DNA from: Thermoleophilum album
Lineage (GTDB): Bacteria; Actinomycetota; Thermoleophilia; Solirubrobacterales; Thermoleophilaceae
Length of the DNA: 64,000 nt
Assembly (NCBI RefSeq): GCF_028867705.1
Contig: NZ_CP066171.1
Coordinates: 1,798,001-1,862,000 of the forward strand
Reading direction: 5' to 3'
Part shown: piece after piece, positions 13,556-28,325 of the stretch
Position numbering within the stretch: position 1 is the stretch's first letter
How the letters are laid out: the number at the start of each line of letters is the position of its first letter
Translations under genes and position numbers: made by a program
Notes under the pieces: model-generated
Database searches by the model: none
What the model was told of the DNA's origin: nothing
Seen by the model: only the letters and a program-made list of their open reading frames with translations

Positions 13556-13768
13556 ATGCCCGAGGTTCCTGCTCACATCACCGGCACGGTCTGGAAGATC
13601 GAGTGCGAGGTGGGCCAACAGGTCGAGGAAGGCGACACCCTCGTCGTGCTCGAGTCGATGAAGATGGAGATGCCCGTCGAAGCCGAAGAGGCCGGGACGG
13701 TCAAGGAGATTCTCTGCGAAGAGGGCCAGGCCGTCTCCGAGGGCGACCCGCTGGTGATCATCGAGTGA
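13556..13768 (+). CDS. Stand-alone biotin carboxyl carrier protein (biotinyl/lipoyl domain)
   Basis: A 70-residue single-domain protein. The biotinylation motif ESMKMEMPV is at residues 33-41, with the target Lys35, framed by the two symmetric halves of a biotinyl domain (HITGTVWKIECEVGQQVEEGD and AGTVKEILCEEGQAVSEGD). It would carry CO2 between a biotin carboxylase and a carboxyltransferase such as the beta subunit at 3399. It has a strong AGGAGAGGAGGAGG ribosome site. It stands alone and its 3' end overlaps the convergent TetR gene by 11 bases. The C-terminal VIIE stop is in the usual place, so it is complete. Confidence 0.92.
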   Translation: MPEVPAHITGTVWKIECEVGQQVEEGDTLVVLESMKMEMPVEAEEAGTVKEILCEEGQAVSEGDPLVIIE

Positions 13769-14504
13769 CGGTGGCCCCGTCGCCGGCTCGCTGTCGGCGG
13801 CGCGGCGCCATCACGCCGTCCCAGATTTCGACCAGAGCGGCGACGAGGTCGGCGTCGCTGACGCCCGTCGAGCCGACGATCTGCTGGTAGCAGGCGCGCT
13901 CGACACCCCACACGAGCGCGACCGACAAGGCGCGCGCCTGGACCGGGTCGACGCCGTCGGCCACCAGCCGGCGCTCGGTGCCGGCGACGAAGCGCTCGAC
14001 GAGACCGCGCCAGAAGCGTGCCGTCGGCTCGTCGTAGGTCGACGCCTCGACCACGGCGCGCAGCAGTGCGGCGTGCTCGCGGTGCAGGCGCAAAATCGCG
14101 TCGAGTGCCTCGGCCAGCTCCTCGCGCGTGCCCTCTCCGCTCCACCACTGCTCGGCTTGCTCGTAGAGGGCCGCCGCGACCTGCTCGGTGAGCCGTTCCA
14201 GAAGCTCGCGCTTGTCGCGGAAGTAGAAGTAGAAGGCGGTGCGCGTGAGACCGGCGCGCTCGGTGATTCGGGCGACGCTCAGCTCGGCGAGCGAAGTCCC
14301 CTCGCGCAATAGCGCTTCGGCGGCTTGCAGCAGCTTCGCCTCGCCCTCTCGGGGACCGGCATCGTCGCCTCCTCGCCGCGACAGCGCGCCGCTATGGCGC
14401 TGGGTGAGCCCGCGCCGCGCTCCGACCGCTGATCCCTCGTCAGACACTCGTACCAGCGAGTCTACGCCAGGGTGCGGAGCGCAGCTTGAGGCATCTCTTG
14501 ACAC
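13758..14504 (-). CDS. TetR family transcriptional regulator
   Basis: A protein of up to 248 residues. The TetR helix-turn-helix reads LLQAAEALLREGTSLAELSVARITERAGLTRTAFYFYFRDK, at about residues 58-98 counted from GTG 14504. An all-helical ligand domain follows (HREHAALLRAVVEAS, GVERACYQQIV). The start is uncertain: GTG 14504 gives an unconserved 50-residue lead, and GTG 14447 is a plausible shorter start. It faces the R2-like oxidase gene across a gap carrying the palindrome TTGACAATGTGTCAA, a typical TetR operator, so it probably represses both itself and the oxidase. The ligand is unknown; a fatty acid or acyl-CoA is a guess from context. Confidence 0.85.
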   Translation of the reverse strand: MSRDASSCAPHPGVDSLVRVSDEGSAVGARRGLTQRHSGALSRRGGDDAGPREGEAKLLQAAEALLREGTSLAELSVARITERAGLTRTAFYFYFRDKRELLERLTEQVAAALYEQAEQWWSGEGTREELAEALDAILRLHREHAALLRAVVEASTYDEPTARFWRGLVERFVAGTERRLVADGVDPVQARALSVALVWGVERACYQQIVGSTGVSDADLVAALVEIWDGVMAPRRRQRAGDGATVTR

Positions 14505-14561
14505 TTCGCCGAGGCATCTCTTGACATCTCGCTTGACAATGTGTCAAGAACCGCCTACCTT
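14488..14561. promoter_or_regulatory. Divergent TetR operator and R2-like oxidase promoter with repeated TTGACA
   Basis: A palindrome TTGACA-ATG-TGTCAA lies at 14533-14547. Its left arm also forms a −35 for the plus strand, 17 bases before a −10-like TACCTT (14556-14561). Its right arm reads TTGACA on the minus strand toward tetR. A 16-bp direct repeat GAGGCATCTCTTGACA at 14488-14503 and 14511-14526 (23-bp period) adds two more half-sites. The whole is a plausible cooperative operator array; binding is inferred. Confidence 0.65.
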
Positions 14562-14668
14562 TGTCGCCGGGCGGCGACGGCGCCGCTGCAGTCGGAGCCG
14601 TTCCGGCGCCCGCGAGCATCGGAACGACGCTCGCGCGAGGCTTCGCGGACGACAAAGGAGGCGTCGAA

Positions 14669-15571
14669 GTGGCAAACCTGCTCGAGCTCACGCGCCAGGG
14701 CGACCCGGGAACGATCGTCGACGAGTCGCAGCTCGACAAGATCCAACTGCAAAACCCCCAGCAGCTCTACGAGCTGTGGGAGCGCCAGCACTGGTCAGCG
14801 CACGCGATCGATCTCTCCCGCGACGTCGACGACTGGCTAGCGGTACCTGACGACGAACGCGAGTACATGCTCTGGAGCTTGTCGTCGTTCTTCATCGGTG
14901 AAGAGCGGGTCACCACTCAGTTTTCCGGTCTGGTCATGGCCTATGAAGACCAATCGGAAGAGGCCTACCTCACGACCCAACAGGTCGACGAGGCTCGCCA
15001 CACGCAGTTCTTCGCCCGCTACTACGACACCGTCTTCAAGATCGGCGGCGGTATCGACGCTCAGCTCGAGCGCGTGCGCGAGCACGTCAACGATGCGTTC
15101 GTGAAGCTGTTCGACGAAGCGCTCGTGGACGCCAACAAGCGGTTGATCGCCGATCCCAGCGACCGCGACGCGAAGATCGATTTCGTCACCACCTACATGA
15201 TGGTGATCGAGGGAACCCTGGCTCTCACCGGCCAGCACACGATCACGCGCTCGCTCGAAGAGCGCGGCATCATGCCCGGGTTCGTCGAAGGGTTCCGGCA
15301 CATCGCCACCGACGAGCACCGTCACGTCGCCTACGGCACCTGGTATTTGCAACAGGCGGTCAGGCGCGACCGCTCGGCTGCCGAGCGCATCCAGGCGAAG
15401 TTGGCCGAGCTACTCCCGGTGGCAGCCGAGGTGCTGGTGCCGCCAGGGCACTCGCTCGACGAGGAGTGGGAACTCTTTGGCTTCACCCGCAGCGACGTCC
15501 ACGGATTCGCCTTCCAAGCACTGTCGCGACGGCTTAAGGTGATCGGCCTCGGGGTGCCGCAGTTGGTCTAG
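14669..15571 (+). CDS. R2-like ligand-binding oxidase (R2lox), Mn/Fe di-metal protein
   Basis: A 300-residue ferritin-like four-helix di-metal protein of the ribonucleotide-reductase R2 fold. The six metal ligands are visible: Glu78 (IGEERV), Glu108 and His111 (DEARH), Glu181 (VIEGT), Glu216 and His219 (DEHRH). Val81 and Tyr176, the pair that forms the Tyr-Val ether cross-link in characterised R2lox, sit at the matching spacings (+3 from the first Glu, −5 from the fourth). That separates it from true NrdB. R2lox binds a fatty acid and is thought to oxidise hydrocarbon-like substrates. GTG at 14669 is chosen for its AAAGGAGG site; the 5' leader is about 100 bases. A terminator follows. Confidence 0.9.
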   Translation: MANLLELTRQGDPGTIVDESQLDKIQLQNPQQLYELWERQHWSAHAIDLSRDVDDWLAVPDDEREYMLWSLSSFFIGEERVTTQFSGLVMAYEDQSEEAYLTTQQVDEARHTQFFARYYDTVFKIGGGIDAQLERVREHVNDAFVKLFDEALVDANKRLIADPSDRDAKIDFVTTYMMVIEGTLALTGQHTITRSLEERGIMPGFVEGFRHIATDEHRHVAYGTWYLQQAVRRDRSAAERIQAKLAELLPVAAEVLVPPGHSLDEEWELFGFTRSDVHGFAFQALSRRLKVIGLGVPQLV

Positions 15572-15666: not shown

Positions 15667-15711
15667 ACCGCTCCCGGCCGGGCTGGTGACCGCTCGGTCG
15701 GGAGCGGTTTT
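15667..15711 (+). terminator. Rho-independent terminator after the R2-like oxidase
   Basis: Arms ACCGCTCCCG (15667-15676) and CGGGAGCGGT (15699-15708) form a 10-bp stem followed by TTTT. This excludes the ATG at 15712 as a natural start for the next gene and separates the oxidase from the crotonase downstream. Confidence 0.85.
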
Positions 15712-16692: not shown

Positions 16693-17880
16693 GTGCCGCC
16701 GTTGATCACGCGGGAGGAGGCCCTCGAGCTCGGGAAGATCGAGGACCACGCCGAGATCGAGAAGCTCGTCGAACGCGCCTGGCGCGTTCGCCTCGAACGG
16801 TTCGGCGACTCCACCGATCTCTGCTCGCTCGTCAACGCCAAGTCCGGCGGCTGTGCCGAGGACTGTGGCTTCTGCGCCCAGTCGCGCTACGCGTCGGCCG
16901 ACACGCCGATGCACCCGATGATGGAGCCCGAGCAGATCCTCGAGCACGCGAAGGCCGCCGAGGCTGCCGGCGCACACCGTTTCTGCATGGTCACGCAGGG
17001 CCAAGGCTTGTCGAAGCGCGACTTCGAGAAGATTCTCGAGGGCGCGCGCTTGGTCGCCGAACACACCAACCTCAAGCGTTGCGTGTCGATCGGCCACATC
17101 TCTCCCGAGCGGGCGCGCAAGCTCAAGGAAGCGGGGGTACAGCGCGTCCACCACAACGTCGAGACCGCGCGCTCCTACTACCCCGAGGTCTCGACCACCG
17201 TCCGCTACGAGGGGCGCTTGCGCACCATCCAGGCCGTCAAGGAAGCGGGCCTCGAGACCTGTGTCGGCGGGATCCTGAACCTCGGCGAGTCGCCCGAACA
17301 ACGCGTCGAGATGGCGTTCGAACTCGCCGAGCTAAACCCGACGAGCGTTCCCATCAACCTCCTCAACCCGCGCCCGGGGACGAAGTTCGGCGATCGCCCG
17401 CTGATGGATCCCTGGGAGGCTGTCAAGTGGATCGCGATTTTCCGCTTGATCCTCCCCGACGCCCTCTTCCGTCTGTGCGGCGGGCGCAACGAAAACCTCG
17501 GCCTCGGCGAATTCCAGAAGCTGGCGGTGAAGGCGGGGCTGAACGGGGTGATGATGGGCAATTTCCTCACCACCCTCGGATCGGATCCGGCCTGGGATCG
17601 CAAGCTCTTCACCGACCTCGGCCTCAACGTGTGGCGCCAGCCCGACAACGGGTCCAACCCGCGGCCCGACAACCGCTCGGGATGGCTCGAGGGCGAGACG
17701 CCGCGCACGCCGATCGACGACCTCATCGACAGCCAGTCCGAAGCGCCGCTGTGGAACCCAGCGCGACAGCTGCGCCGGCGCAAGAAGCGCTACGTGCCGC
17801 CGCGTCCCGACGGGGCGCCGAACCGCGGCCTGCGGGTCGTCCAGGTCGAGCCCGAGCGCGAGCGGGCGGCGACCGCCTGA
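16693..17880 (+). CDS. bioB: Biotin synthase
   Basis: A 395-residue radical SAM enzyme that inserts sulfur into dethiobiotin. The [4Fe-4S] motif CAEDCGFC uses Cys54, Cys58 and Cys61. Downstream are YNLE-like HHNVETARSYY, the GGILNLGES segment and the 2Fe-2S region RLCGGRNENLG. The last 45-50 residues (after NPARQL) are a basic extension beyond the usual 320-350 residue length and have no recognised function. The start is GTG with a CAGGAGG site. bioF follows after 4 bases, so the unit is bioB-bioF-bioD. Confidence 0.96.
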   Translation: MPPLITREEALELGKIEDHAEIEKLVERAWRVRLERFGDSTDLCSLVNAKSGGCAEDCGFCAQSRYASADTPMHPMMEPEQILEHAKAAEAAGAHRFCMVTQGQGLSKRDFEKILEGARLVAEHTNLKRCVSIGHISPERARKLKEAGVQRVHHNVETARSYYPEVSTTVRYEGRLRTIQAVKEAGLETCVGGILNLGESPEQRVEMAFELAELNPTSVPINLLNPRPGTKFGDRPLMDPWEAVKWIAIFRLILPDALFRLCGGRNENLGLGEFQKLAVKAGLNGVMMGNFLTTLGSDPAWDRKLFTDLGLNVWRQPDNGSNPRPDNRSGWLEGETPRTPIDDLIDSQSEAPLWNPARQLRRRKKRYVPPRPDGAPNRGLRVVQVEPERERAATA

Positions 17881-17884
17881 GGCG

Positions 17885-19084
17885 ATGCAGAGCGAGCTCG
17901 AGCAGCGCCTCGCCGAGCTTCGCGACAAAGGTCTCTATCGCCGGTTGCGAGTGATCTCTGGCCCGCAGGGGCCGCGCGTGCTGCTCGACGGCAAGCCCGT
18001 CCTGTTGCTCTGCTCGAATAACTATCTAGGGCTTGCCGACGATCCGCGCGTGCGCGGCGCGGCCGCCGAGGCAGCGATGCGCTACGGCGCCGGCGCTGGC
18101 GCCTCTCGCCTGGTGAGCGGGAACATGACCGTTCACCGGCGCCTCGAGGAGCGCCTGGCCGAGTTCAAGGGCTACGAGGCGTGTGTCCTGTTCGGCTCGG
18201 GCTACCTCGCCAACACCGGCGTGATCCAGGCCTTAGCCCGCGCCGGCGAGGTGGTGCTCTCGGACGAGCTCAACCACGCCAGCATCATCGATGGCTGTCG
18301 CCTCGCCAAAGCCGAGCGGTTCGTCTATCGCCACTGCGATCTCGAGCATCTCGAGTGGGGTCTGCGCAAGGCAGAGGGACGAGCGAGCTTGATCGTCACC
18401 GACTCGGTTTTCTCGATGGACGGTGACGTGGCACCGCTCGCCGAAATCGTCGAGCTCGCCGAGCGTTACGACTGTCGCGTGATGGTCGACGAGGCGCACG
18501 CCACTGGCGCTCTCGGCCCCGGCGGGCGCGGCGCCGTTGCCGCCGCGGGGCTCGAGGGCGAAGTCGACGTGCTGGTCGGCACGCTCGGCAAGGCGCTCGG
18601 CTCCTACGGCGCCTACGTCTGCTGCTCGCGGACGATGGCGAAGTACCTCGTCAACACCGCACGCACGCTGATCTTCTCGACCGCTCTGCCGCCGCCGGTC
18701 GTGGCCGCCGCGCTGGCCGCGCTCGAGATCCTCGAGGAGCGCCCCGAGCGGGTCGAGCGTCTGCGGCGTAACGCTCGCATCCTGCGCTCGACGCTCGCCG
18801 ACCACGGCGTCGAGGTGCCCTCGCAGACCCAGATTCTCCCGGCGGTGGTCGGACCCGCCGCAGCAGCGACGCGAGCGTGCGAGCTCGCGCTCGAGCGGGG
18901 GGTGTTCGCGCAGGCGATCCGTCCGCCGACGGTGCCCGAGGGCACGTCGCGACTGAGGCTTACGGTGATGGCGTCGCACACCGAGGCGGAGCTCCGGCAC
19001 GCGGGACGGACGCTCGCCCAGGCGCTGCGAACAGCTCGCCAGGAGATGCGCGAGCGCACGAGCTCGGCTTTGGCCGTAGCGTGA
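17885..19084 (+). CDS. bioF: 8-amino-7-oxononanoate synthase
   Basis: A 399-residue PLP-dependent alpha-oxoamine synthase condensing pimeloyl-CoA or pimeloyl-ACP with alanine in biotin synthesis. Visible are [21 protein letters not shown], the Asp of [12 protein letters not shown] and the PLP Lys in [13 protein letters not shown]. The C-terminal [15 protein letters not shown] is typical. Length is normal with about 15 extra C-terminal residues. It is co-transcribed between bioB and bioD. Glycine C-acetyltransferase is the main alternative family member but is unlikely given the bio neighbours. Confidence 0.95.
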
Positions 19085-19093
19085 GCGGCGGCC

Positions 19094-19774
19094 GTGCGCG
19101 GGCTCTTCGTTACAGCCACCGACACCGAAGTCGGAAAGAGCGTTACCGCCGCTGCCATCGTCGCCGGGCTCGTGGCACGCGGTAAGCGGGTGGCAGCTTT
19201 CAAACCAGCGGTAACCGGCGTGGCCGACGAGCCGGGTCCGTTCGGGCGCGATCACGAGCTCTTGGCGAGCGTGGCCAACGCCGGCCAGACGCCCGACGAT
19301 GTGGCCCCGTACCGTTTCGACCCGCCGCTTTCGCCGCACCTCGCTGCCGAACTTGCGGGTGTCGAGATCGACCCGACCCGTCTCGTCGAGCACGCCCGCT
19401 CGCAGGCGGCGCGAGCCGACGTCATCGTGTGCGAGGGCGTGGGCGGCCTGTTGGTGCCGCTCACAGCCAACTATCTGGTACGCGACCTAGCGCGCGACCT
19501 CGCTCTGCCGCTGGTGGTGGCAGCGCGTCCGGGGCTCGGCACGATCAACCACACGCTGCTGACACTCGAAGCGGCGCGCGCGGCCGGGCTTACGGTGGCG
19601 GCGGTGGTGTTCACGCCGTGGCCGAACGATCCCGAGCCGATCCACCACTCCAACCGTGACACGGTCGAGCAGCTCGGTCGCGTCGCCACCTACACGCTGC
19701 CGCGCACGACGCGCGCCGAGCTCGCTGCGAGCGCCGCCGACCTTCCCCTCGACGCCTGGCTCACACCGCGCTAG
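19094..19774 (+). CDS. bioD: ATP-dependent dethiobiotin synthetase
   Basis: A 226-residue P-loop enzyme that closes the ureido ring of dethiobiotin from 7,8-diaminopelargonate, CO2 and ATP. The modified Walker A VTATDTEVGKSVTAAA is at residues 5-20, then FKPAVTG, and CEGVGGLLVPL provides the catalytic acidic segment. GTG at 19094 lies 10 bases after bioF. It is the third and last gene of the operon, and its end is convergent with the exporter gene at 19803. Confidence 0.94.
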   Translation: MRGLFVTATDTEVGKSVTAAAIVAGLVARGKRVAAFKPAVTGVADEPGPFGRDHELLASVANAGQTPDDVAPYRFDPPLSPHLAAELAGVEIDPTRLVEHARSQAARADVIVCEGVGGLLVPLTANYLVRDLARDLALPLVVAARPGLGTINHTLLTLEAARAAGLTVAAVVFTPWPNDPEPIHHSNRDTVEQLGRVATYTLPRTTRAELAASAADLPLDAWLTPR

Positions 19775-28136: not shown

Positions 28137-28325
28137 TTACTCTTCGAGCGGCTCGAAGTCGCGCTTGCGCGCCCCGCAGACCGGACAGAACCAGTCGTCG
28201 GGAATCTCCTCGAACGGCGTTCCCGGTGGAATACCCCCGTCCGGATCACCCTCGGCTGGGTCGTAGATGTACCCGCACGAGGTGCAGATCCACTTTTGCA
28301 GCGTTTTCGTGTCGGCGTCTCCCAC
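28137..28325 (-). CDS. Rubredoxin
   Basis: A 62-residue iron protein with the two CxxC knuckles that bind one Fe: [12 protein letters not shown] and [15 protein letters not shown]. The intervening [18 protein letters not shown] is typical of rubredoxins that pass electrons to alkane hydroxylases or other oxygenases. GTG at 28325 is chosen because TACTCT stands 9 bases upstream, and the earlier frame is unconserved. It diverges from a NUDIX gene with an identical TACTCT hexamer. No alkane hydroxylase or rubredoxin reductase is in the window, so its partner is unknown. Confidence 0.93.

What the first reader, a model, noticed from the sequence alone, without database searches (positions are those of the whole stretch)
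14488..15571. R2lox oxidase under a palindromic TetR operator whose arms serve as −35 boxes in both directions
The oxidase keeps all six metal ligands (Glu78, Glu108, His111, Glu181, Glu216, His219) and the Val81/Tyr176 pair that cross-links in studied R2lox. Between it and the divergent tetR lies TTGACA-ATG-TGTCAA, its left arm a −35 for the oxidase and its right arm a TTGACA for tetR, plus a 16-bp direct repeat adding two more TTGACA half-sites on a 23-bp period. R2lox has no settled physiological role, so a dedicated regulator with a readable operator is a handle on the inducer.
Basis: partly seen in the sequence, partly recalled or inferred. Interest (0 to 1): 0.66.

Follow-up and report, generated by a model that had tools for sequence, protein, structure and literature searches.

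The report
EthR-type switch controlling an R2lox oxidase
A metal-dependent oxidase of the little-understood R2lox group sits next to its own repressor gene, and the repressor's likely DNA-binding site recurs in related bacteria in front of other genes for oxidising long-chain fats and alkanes, which points to what this kind of oxidase does in the cell.

Summary
The finding is real, and better supported by relatives than by the sequence alone. The 300-aa oxidase (GTG 14669) has all six metal ligands and the Val81/Tyr176 pair, invariant in 35 ortholog rows. It is a deep sister clade of canonical R2lox (about 31% identity; Gln at a second-sphere position that is Tyr in studied R2lox). The divergent regulator is EthR-like by sequence and fold. 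The operator YTGACA-N3-TGTCAR is in the oxidase upstream region of 16 of 16 genomes with an adjacent tetR, against 1 of 12 without (Fisher p = 6e-7). The left arm is a plausible -35 for the oxidase here (TTGACA-17-TACCTT); the right arm is not supported as a -35 for tetR.

New: the exact motif occurs 42 times in 18 such genomes, against 0 for the reversed control. Many sites lie just before P450, alcohol oxidase/SDR, aldehyde dehydrogenase, acyl-CoA ligase, ferredoxin reductase and desaturase genes. In this genome the only other good site precedes a flavin monooxygenase. Best reading: a lipid- or alkane-responsive EthR-type repressor controls R2lox as an aliphatic hydroxylase. The pairing arose separately in mycobacteria with an unrelated TetR. 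Binding, inducer and substrate are inferred.

The parts
13758..14447 (-). tetR, EthR-like repressor; most likely GTG start at 14447 (open frame runs to GTG 14504, inside the first repeat)
   Evidence: Pfam TetR_N and EthR_C; EthR best in sequence and fold searches; start chosen by codon scoring
14488..14509 (.). first copy of the 22-nt direct repeat, with half-site TTGACA 14498-14503
   Evidence: HR41 has only one copy
14511..14532 (.). second copy of the repeat, with half-site TTGACA 14521-14526, 12 bp from the palindrome
   Evidence: 12-bp and 22-bp spacings of extra sites recur in relatives
14533..14547 (.). operator palindrome TTGACA-ATG-TGTCAA
   Evidence: conserved as YTGACA-N3-TGTCAR upstream of orthologs that have the tetR
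14533..14538 (+). left arm as -35 of the oxidase promoter (inferred)
   Evidence: TAnnnT at spacing 16-19 in 7 of 18 loci
14556..14561 (+). -10-like TACCTT, 17 bp after the left arm (inferred)
14654..14661 (+). ribosome-binding site AAAGGAGG
   Evidence: sequence
14669..15571 (+). R2lox-like oxidase, 300 aa, GTG start
15667..15711 (+). likely intrinsic terminator (ACCGCTCCCG ... CGGGAGCGGT, 22-nt loop, TTTT), separating the oxidase from the next gene

Best explanation
An EthR-type TetR repressor, transcribed divergently from an R2lox-like dimetal oxidase, binds a 15-bp palindrome (YTGACA-N3-TGTCAR) plus neighbouring half-sites that overlap the oxidase promoter and keeps it off. A hydrophobic long-chain ligand (alkane, alcohol, acid or acyl-CoA) releases it. 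The oxidase then uses O2 at its dimetal centre to hydroxylate a long aliphatic substrate. In relatives the same operator also stands before P450s, alcohol and aldehyde dehydrogenases, a ferredoxin reductase and acyl-CoA ligases, i.e. alkane or lipid to alcohol to aldehyde to acid to acyl-CoA. Shown by comparison: the gene pair, the operator and its recurrence, the residues and folds. Inferred: binding, repression, inducer, substrate, metals. Rough confidence: repressor-operator pairing 0.9; long-chain aliphatic oxidation 0.55; alkane specifically 0.35.
For: Operator at 9/10 or better in 16 of 16 tetR-adjacent ortholog loci (0.045 expected in shuffles) and 1 of 12 without tetR, Fisher p 6e-7; also in three near-identical loci, one of which was seen to keep the same TetR about 4 kb away. 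tetR is the only neighbour shared across contexts. 42 exact sites in 18 genomes versus 0 for the control, many 5-150 bp before GMC oxidase/SDR, P450, FadD11-like ligase, FA desaturase, ferredoxin reductase and aldehyde dehydrogenase genes; the commonest regulated P450 is closest to CYP125 and to CYP124, a lipid omega-hydroxylase. In this genome and HR41 the second-best site, TTGACATGGTGTTAA, is about 195 bp before an FMO gene. TetR is nearest EthR, then FasR (acyl-CoA). R2lox fold, ligands and tunnel Ala185 present. R2lox in Rhodococcus plasmids sits with NDMA-alcohol dehydrogenase, FAD reductase, ferredoxin, aldehyde dehydrogenase, and in R. opacus an SCP2 protein and fatty acid-CoA ligase. 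GkR2loxI alkane activity and hexadecane induction of an archaeal R2lox gene: PMC10867098.
Against: No binding, expression or activity data. Some genomes carry further EthR-type TetRs beside sites of the same sequence (G017 P450, G212 sulfatase), so the other sites may belong to paralogs. The FMO site is absent in the congener G115 and most other genomes. 12 of 31 ortholog loci have no neighbouring tetR. No electron-transfer gene is linked in this genome. GkR2loxI activity was measured with crude enzyme and cell lysate. A P450 and FMO set also fits branched-lipid or terpenoid oxidation.
Confidence: 0.6

Rival explanations
1. Same repressor and operator, but the oxidase acts on another hydrophobic compound: fatty acid, branched lipid, terpenoid, sterol side chain or a xenobiotic. 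The regulon is then for that compound, not for n-alkanes.
For: Regulated P450s are nearest CYP125 and CYP124; SDR, FMO and sulfatase are in the set; studied R2lox binds fatty acids (PMC6399176).
Against: GkR2loxI alkane activity (PMC10867098); the FadD, aldehyde dehydrogenase and alcohol oxidase set matches a terminal-oxidation route.
Confidence: 0.3
2. The operator is real but is bound by another TetR; the adjacent tetR is incidental or is one of several paralogs sharing the motif.
For: Other EthR-type TetRs lie beside such sites in G017 and G212; G218 has a 9/10 site with no tetR nearby.
Against: Strict co-occurrence of this TetR and the site at the R2lox gene over many contexts; only one exact site in the window genome.
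Confidence: 0.06
3. The palindrome is only a strong -35 box that happens to be symmetric; no repressor binds.
For: 7-bp arms at gap 3 occur in 3.6% of shuffles; TTGACA-17-TACCTT is promoter-like.
Against: In seven relatives the palindrome lies 24-37 bp before the start codon, mostly without a -10, yet is conserved in both arms; some relatives have CTGACA...TGTCAG, which keeps symmetry but weakens the -35.
Confidence: 0.02
4. The oxidase makes a precursor for biotin, since bioB, bioF and bioD follow it.
For: bioB 16693, bioF 17885, bioD 19094 downstream.
Against: The neighbourhood is kept only within the genus; a likely terminator separates them.
Confidence: 0.02

Closest known systems
R2lox (R2-like ligand-binding oxidases): M. 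tuberculosis 3ee4/4ac8, S. erythraea 7qbp, GkR2loxI 4hr0
   Same: Fold (best Foldseek hits are all R2lox, ahead of RNR R2), six metal ligands, Val/Tyr cross-link pair, Ala at the tunnel position that is Phe in RNR R2
   Different: About 31% identity; separate clade (98/99 support); Gln189 invariant where studied R2lox has Tyr175; below NCBIfam cut-offs
GkR2loxI alkane monooxygenase (PMC10867098)
   Same: R2lox superfamily; proposed aliphatic hydroxylation
   Different: That gene lies in a cluster with alcohol and aldehyde dehydrogenase genes; here a single gene plus tetR, with candidate pathway genes scattered under a shared operator. The word 'regulator' does not occur in that paper's main text
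EthR-ethA of M. tuberculosis
   Same: TetR with EthR_C domain and EthR fold, divergent from an oxygenase gene (ethA arrangement from my own knowledge); EthR has been crystallised with hexadecyl octanoate and octamerises on its operator (cited in PMC5895659)
   Different: Partner is a dimetal oxidase, not the flavin monooxygenase EthA; about 25% identity; a clean 15-bp palindrome
Mycobacterial tetR-R2lox pair (M. yongonense plasmid pMyong1 and four genomes of its relatives)
   Same: A TetR gene next to R2lox
   Different: Co-directional, a TetR that does not match this one at E 0.01, and no TGACA palindrome: separate origin

Membership tests
R2lox | four Glu and two His metal ligands | tested here: met
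   invariant in 35 ortholog rows and 2 paralogs
R2lox | cross-linking Val and Tyr present | tested here: met
   V81 and Y176 invariant, aligned with the Val and Tyr of the M. tuberculosis protein
R2lox | Ala at GkR2loxI position 171 (Phe in RNR R2) | tested here: met
   Ala185 invariant; rule from PMC6399176
R2lox | fold closer to R2lox than to RNR R2 | tested here: met
   34 best Foldseek hits are R2lox, E 8e-13 to 8e-10, RNR from 4.5e-8
R2lox (canonical) | passes an NCBIfam R2lox equivalog cut-off | tested here: not met
   best 157.9 bits against 194; hence filed as a sister clade, not canonical R2lox
R2lox (canonical) | Tyr at GkR2loxI position 175 | tested here: not met
   Gln189, invariant in all 31 rows including both paralogs
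R2lox | Mn/Fe centre, bound fatty acid, actual ether bond | not testable with these tools
   needs purified protein
EthR-like TetR | TetR_N plus EthR_C domains | tested here: met
   35.4 and 33.7 bits, both over cut-off
EthR-like TetR | EthR is the nearest solved relative | tested here: met
   2.5e-28 against 3.6e-11 for the next; 25 best fold hits are EthR
EthR itself | divergent ethA-type flavin monooxygenase | tested here: not met
   the neighbour is the dimetal oxidase; an FMO gene carries a candidate site elsewhere
EthR itself | cooperative multimer on a long operator | not testable with these tools
   extra half-sites at 12 and 22-23 bp are compatible

The most novel reading that the evidence does not exclude
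This R2lox clade is the missing primary hydroxylase of long-chain alkanes in Thermoleophilum-like bacteria, which lack AlkB, and one EthR-type operator ties it to the rest of the terminal-oxidation pathway across Thermoleophilia.
Probability: 0.28. Interest if true: 0.85.

Novelty: new variant of a known kind. Interest (0 to 1): 0.62.

Why it matters
R2lox enzymes have good structures and a debated function. A conserved operator shared with other genes gives an independent, genome-encoded statement of what the enzyme works with, and a short list of inducers to test. The TetR-R2lox pairing arose at least twice with unrelated TetRs, which suggests that substrate-gated expression is a general need of these enzymes. 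If the alkane reading holds, it would help explain how a lineage whose type species is reported to grow only on n-alkanes does so without AlkB.

Tried and rejected
Biotin link (bioB/F/D next door): conserved only in the genus. tetR -35 in the right arm: no -10, 1 of 18 loci. The exact operator sequences in the literature: six papers on unrelated vertebrate work, chance matches. Rv0232/Rv0233 in open papers: none. AlkB in this genome: the single PF00487 hit is desaturase-like; two P450s and five luciferase-like proteins were not excluded as CYP153 or LadA. Paralogs at 319778 and 1934657 have no operator. The tandem R2-like row in the tree (L008_tandem) was probably translated in the wrong frame and is ignored.

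Full report
WHAT IS THERE. The oxidase runs 14669-15571 (GTG start, AAAGGAGG 14654-14661), 300 aa; the longer open frame starting at 14561 is not needed. It matches Pfam Ribonuc_red_sm and R2lox structures best. All eight are invariant in 35 ortholog rows and in the two paralogs of this genome. The regulator is on the opposite strand, 13758 to about 14447; the alternative start at 14504 would lie inside the first repeat. Between the two start codons lie the 22-nt direct repeat (14488-14509, 14511-14532) and the palindrome 14533-14547. The exact 15-mer occurs once in the 2.11 Mb genome.

IS IT MORE THAN CHANCE. By itself the palindrome is modest evidence: 3.6% of shuffles of the intergenic sequence give a 7-bp-arm palindrome with the same gap, though none of 3000 gave four TTGACA/TGTCAA hexamers. 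Comparison settles it. A survey of 399 genomes of the class found a clear ortholog group (53% identity or more) well apart from paralogs. Of 31 genomes examined (30 from that survey plus HR41), 16 have the tetR adjacent, 15 divergent and one (G093) co-directional. All 16 have the motif TGACA-N3-TGTCA at 9/10 or better within 300 bp (0.045 expected). Of 12 genomes with no tetR nearby, one has it (Fisher p = 6e-7; related genomes are not independent, so the p is optimistic). Three near-identical genomes (G124, G172, G382) have the site, and in the one examined more widely (G124) the same TetR lies about 4 kb away behind a transporter gene. The consensus over 20 sites is YTGACAcnnTGTCAR. Second sites recur at 22 bp (G226, G270, G298, G017) and at 12 bp (G314, G270, G304, G375, G212) from the first, close to the 23- and 12-bp spacings of the window.

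PROMOTER CLAIM. On the oxidase side TTGACA is followed at 17 bp by TACCTT, and 7 of 18 loci have TAnnnT at 16-19 bp against a background of 1.4%, so the left arm probably is the -35 in those genomes. In seven other loci (G314, G047, G226, G270, G298, G017, G212) the palindrome sits 24-37 bp before the start codon, where, with one exception (G017, possibly a leaderless start), no -10 fits; there it would block the start region instead. On the tetR side the -10 is missing here and found in 1 of 18 overall, which is no more than chance allows. The operator is conserved; its use as a -35 in both directions is not.

THE OXIDASE. A model built from 31 sequences (pLDDT 92) matches R2lox structures first (7qbp, TM 0.79), then RNR R2. 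The tunnel Ala that separates R2lox from RNR R2 (PMC6399176) is Ala185, invariant. But the clade is distinct: about 31% identity, a separate branch (98/99), Gln189 where studied R2lox has Tyr175, and no NCBIfam R2lox cut-off reached. I file it as a sister clade of canonical R2lox. This genome has two more: one at 319778, and one at 1934657 that is fused to an SCP2 lipid-binding domain.

THE REGULATOR. TetR_N and EthR_C domains; EthR by far the nearest solved relative (2.5e-28, next 3.6e-11); the AlphaFold model's 25 best fold matches are all EthR, followed by FasR, which binds acyl-CoA. EthR controls a monooxygenase and has been crystallised with hexadecyl octanoate (cited in PMC5895659). This makes a long-chain lipid-like inducer the first guess; it is inference.

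THE SHARED OPERATOR. In 18 genomes of the group the exact 13-mer motif occurs 42 times, the reversed control 0 times. Besides the R2lox sites, it lies close to the start of: GMC alcohol oxidase and divergent SDR (G226, G270; SDR in G298), P450 (G226, G270, G314, and G017 with an EthR-type TetR beside it; a second G314 site lies 345 bp from a partly called P450), FadD11-like acyl-CoA ligase (G226, G270, G212), ferredoxin reductase (G017), fatty acid desaturase with divergent P450 (G017), aldehyde dehydrogenase (G212), an SDR pair (G093), and a sulfatase with EthR-type TetR (G212). Several other sites fall inside genes or before genes of unclear role (L139, L141, L146, L148, L152-L156, L160). 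The commonest of these P450s is nearest CYP125 and CYP124, a lipid omega-hydroxylase. Together these are the steps from alkane or lipid to acyl-CoA. In the window genome the only other good site, TTGACATGGTGTTAA (374819-374833), lies about 195 bp before an FMO gene; it is kept in HR41, and FMO orthologs of G270 and G298 have 9/10 sites at -63 and -64, but G115 and most others do not. Caution: paralogous TetRs may share the motif, so 'regulon' here means shared operator, not proven control by one protein.

COMPARISON OUTSIDE THE GROUP. In Rhodococcus plasmids canonical R2lox sits in a cluster with NDMA-alcohol dehydrogenase, FAD reductase, ferredoxin and aldehyde dehydrogenase, plus an SCP2 protein and fatty acid-CoA ligase in R. 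opacus. In M. yongonense and four other genomes a TetR precedes R2lox co-directionally, but that TetR does not match this one and the TGACA palindrome is absent. So two R2lox lineages acquired different TetRs.

WHAT IT PROBABLY DOES. GkR2loxI was reported to oxidise C10-C22 alkanes in crude preparations, and an archaeal R2lox gene to be induced by hexadecane (PMC10867098). Thermoleophilum album, a named member of what is probably this lineage, is reported to use only n-alkanes, with a rubredoxin and FMO-type genes listed as its alkane genes (PMC6741124). The window genome has one rubredoxin (at 28155, in the window), FMO-type genes, and no AlkB found. The identity of the genome is not known; its nearest named relatives are HR41 and Thermoleophilaceae MAGs. 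I therefore favour aliphatic hydroxylation under an EthR-type repressor, with alkanes one candidate among several.

CONFIDENCE. TetR acts on this palindrome: 0.9. The oxidase acts on long-chain aliphatics: 0.55. Specifically on alkanes: 0.35.

Noticed in passing
L011:8622-9890 (+), genome 1934621-1935889: A second R2lox-like protein of this genome is fused to a C-terminal SCP2 lipid-binding domain (422 aa); matches with similarly long open frames recur across the class. In Rhodococcus opacus SCP2 is a separate gene of the R2lox cluster.
   Followed up: partly
L010:8704-9618 (+), genome 319703-320617: A third R2lox-like protein (44% to the window's) without the operator, about 4 kb before a run of Mce/MlaD-like genes.
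   Followed up: no
window 28155-28295 (-): The only rubredoxin found in the genome, a possible electron donor for an alkane hydroxylase, 13 kb from the oxidase.
   Followed up: no
genome 374819-374833, L102:1486-2859: Operator-like TTGACATGGTGTTAA before a flavin monooxygenase gene; kept in HR41, not found in G115.
   Followed up: partly
L058 (G093) and L008/L067 (G375): A second, shorter R2-like gene lies close downstream of the oxidase; in G093 a ferredoxin-reductase-like gene lies between them. A similar reductase carries the operator in G017 (L145).
   Followed up: partly
L057 (G124), L143 (G314), L078 (M. yongonense plasmid): BtrH_N-type genes recur near R2lox or next to the operator in unrelated genomes, in the first two beside a thioesterase-like gene.
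   Followed up: no
window 16693-19774: bioB, bioF, bioD in a row downstream of the oxidase, kept only within the genus.
   Followed up: yes
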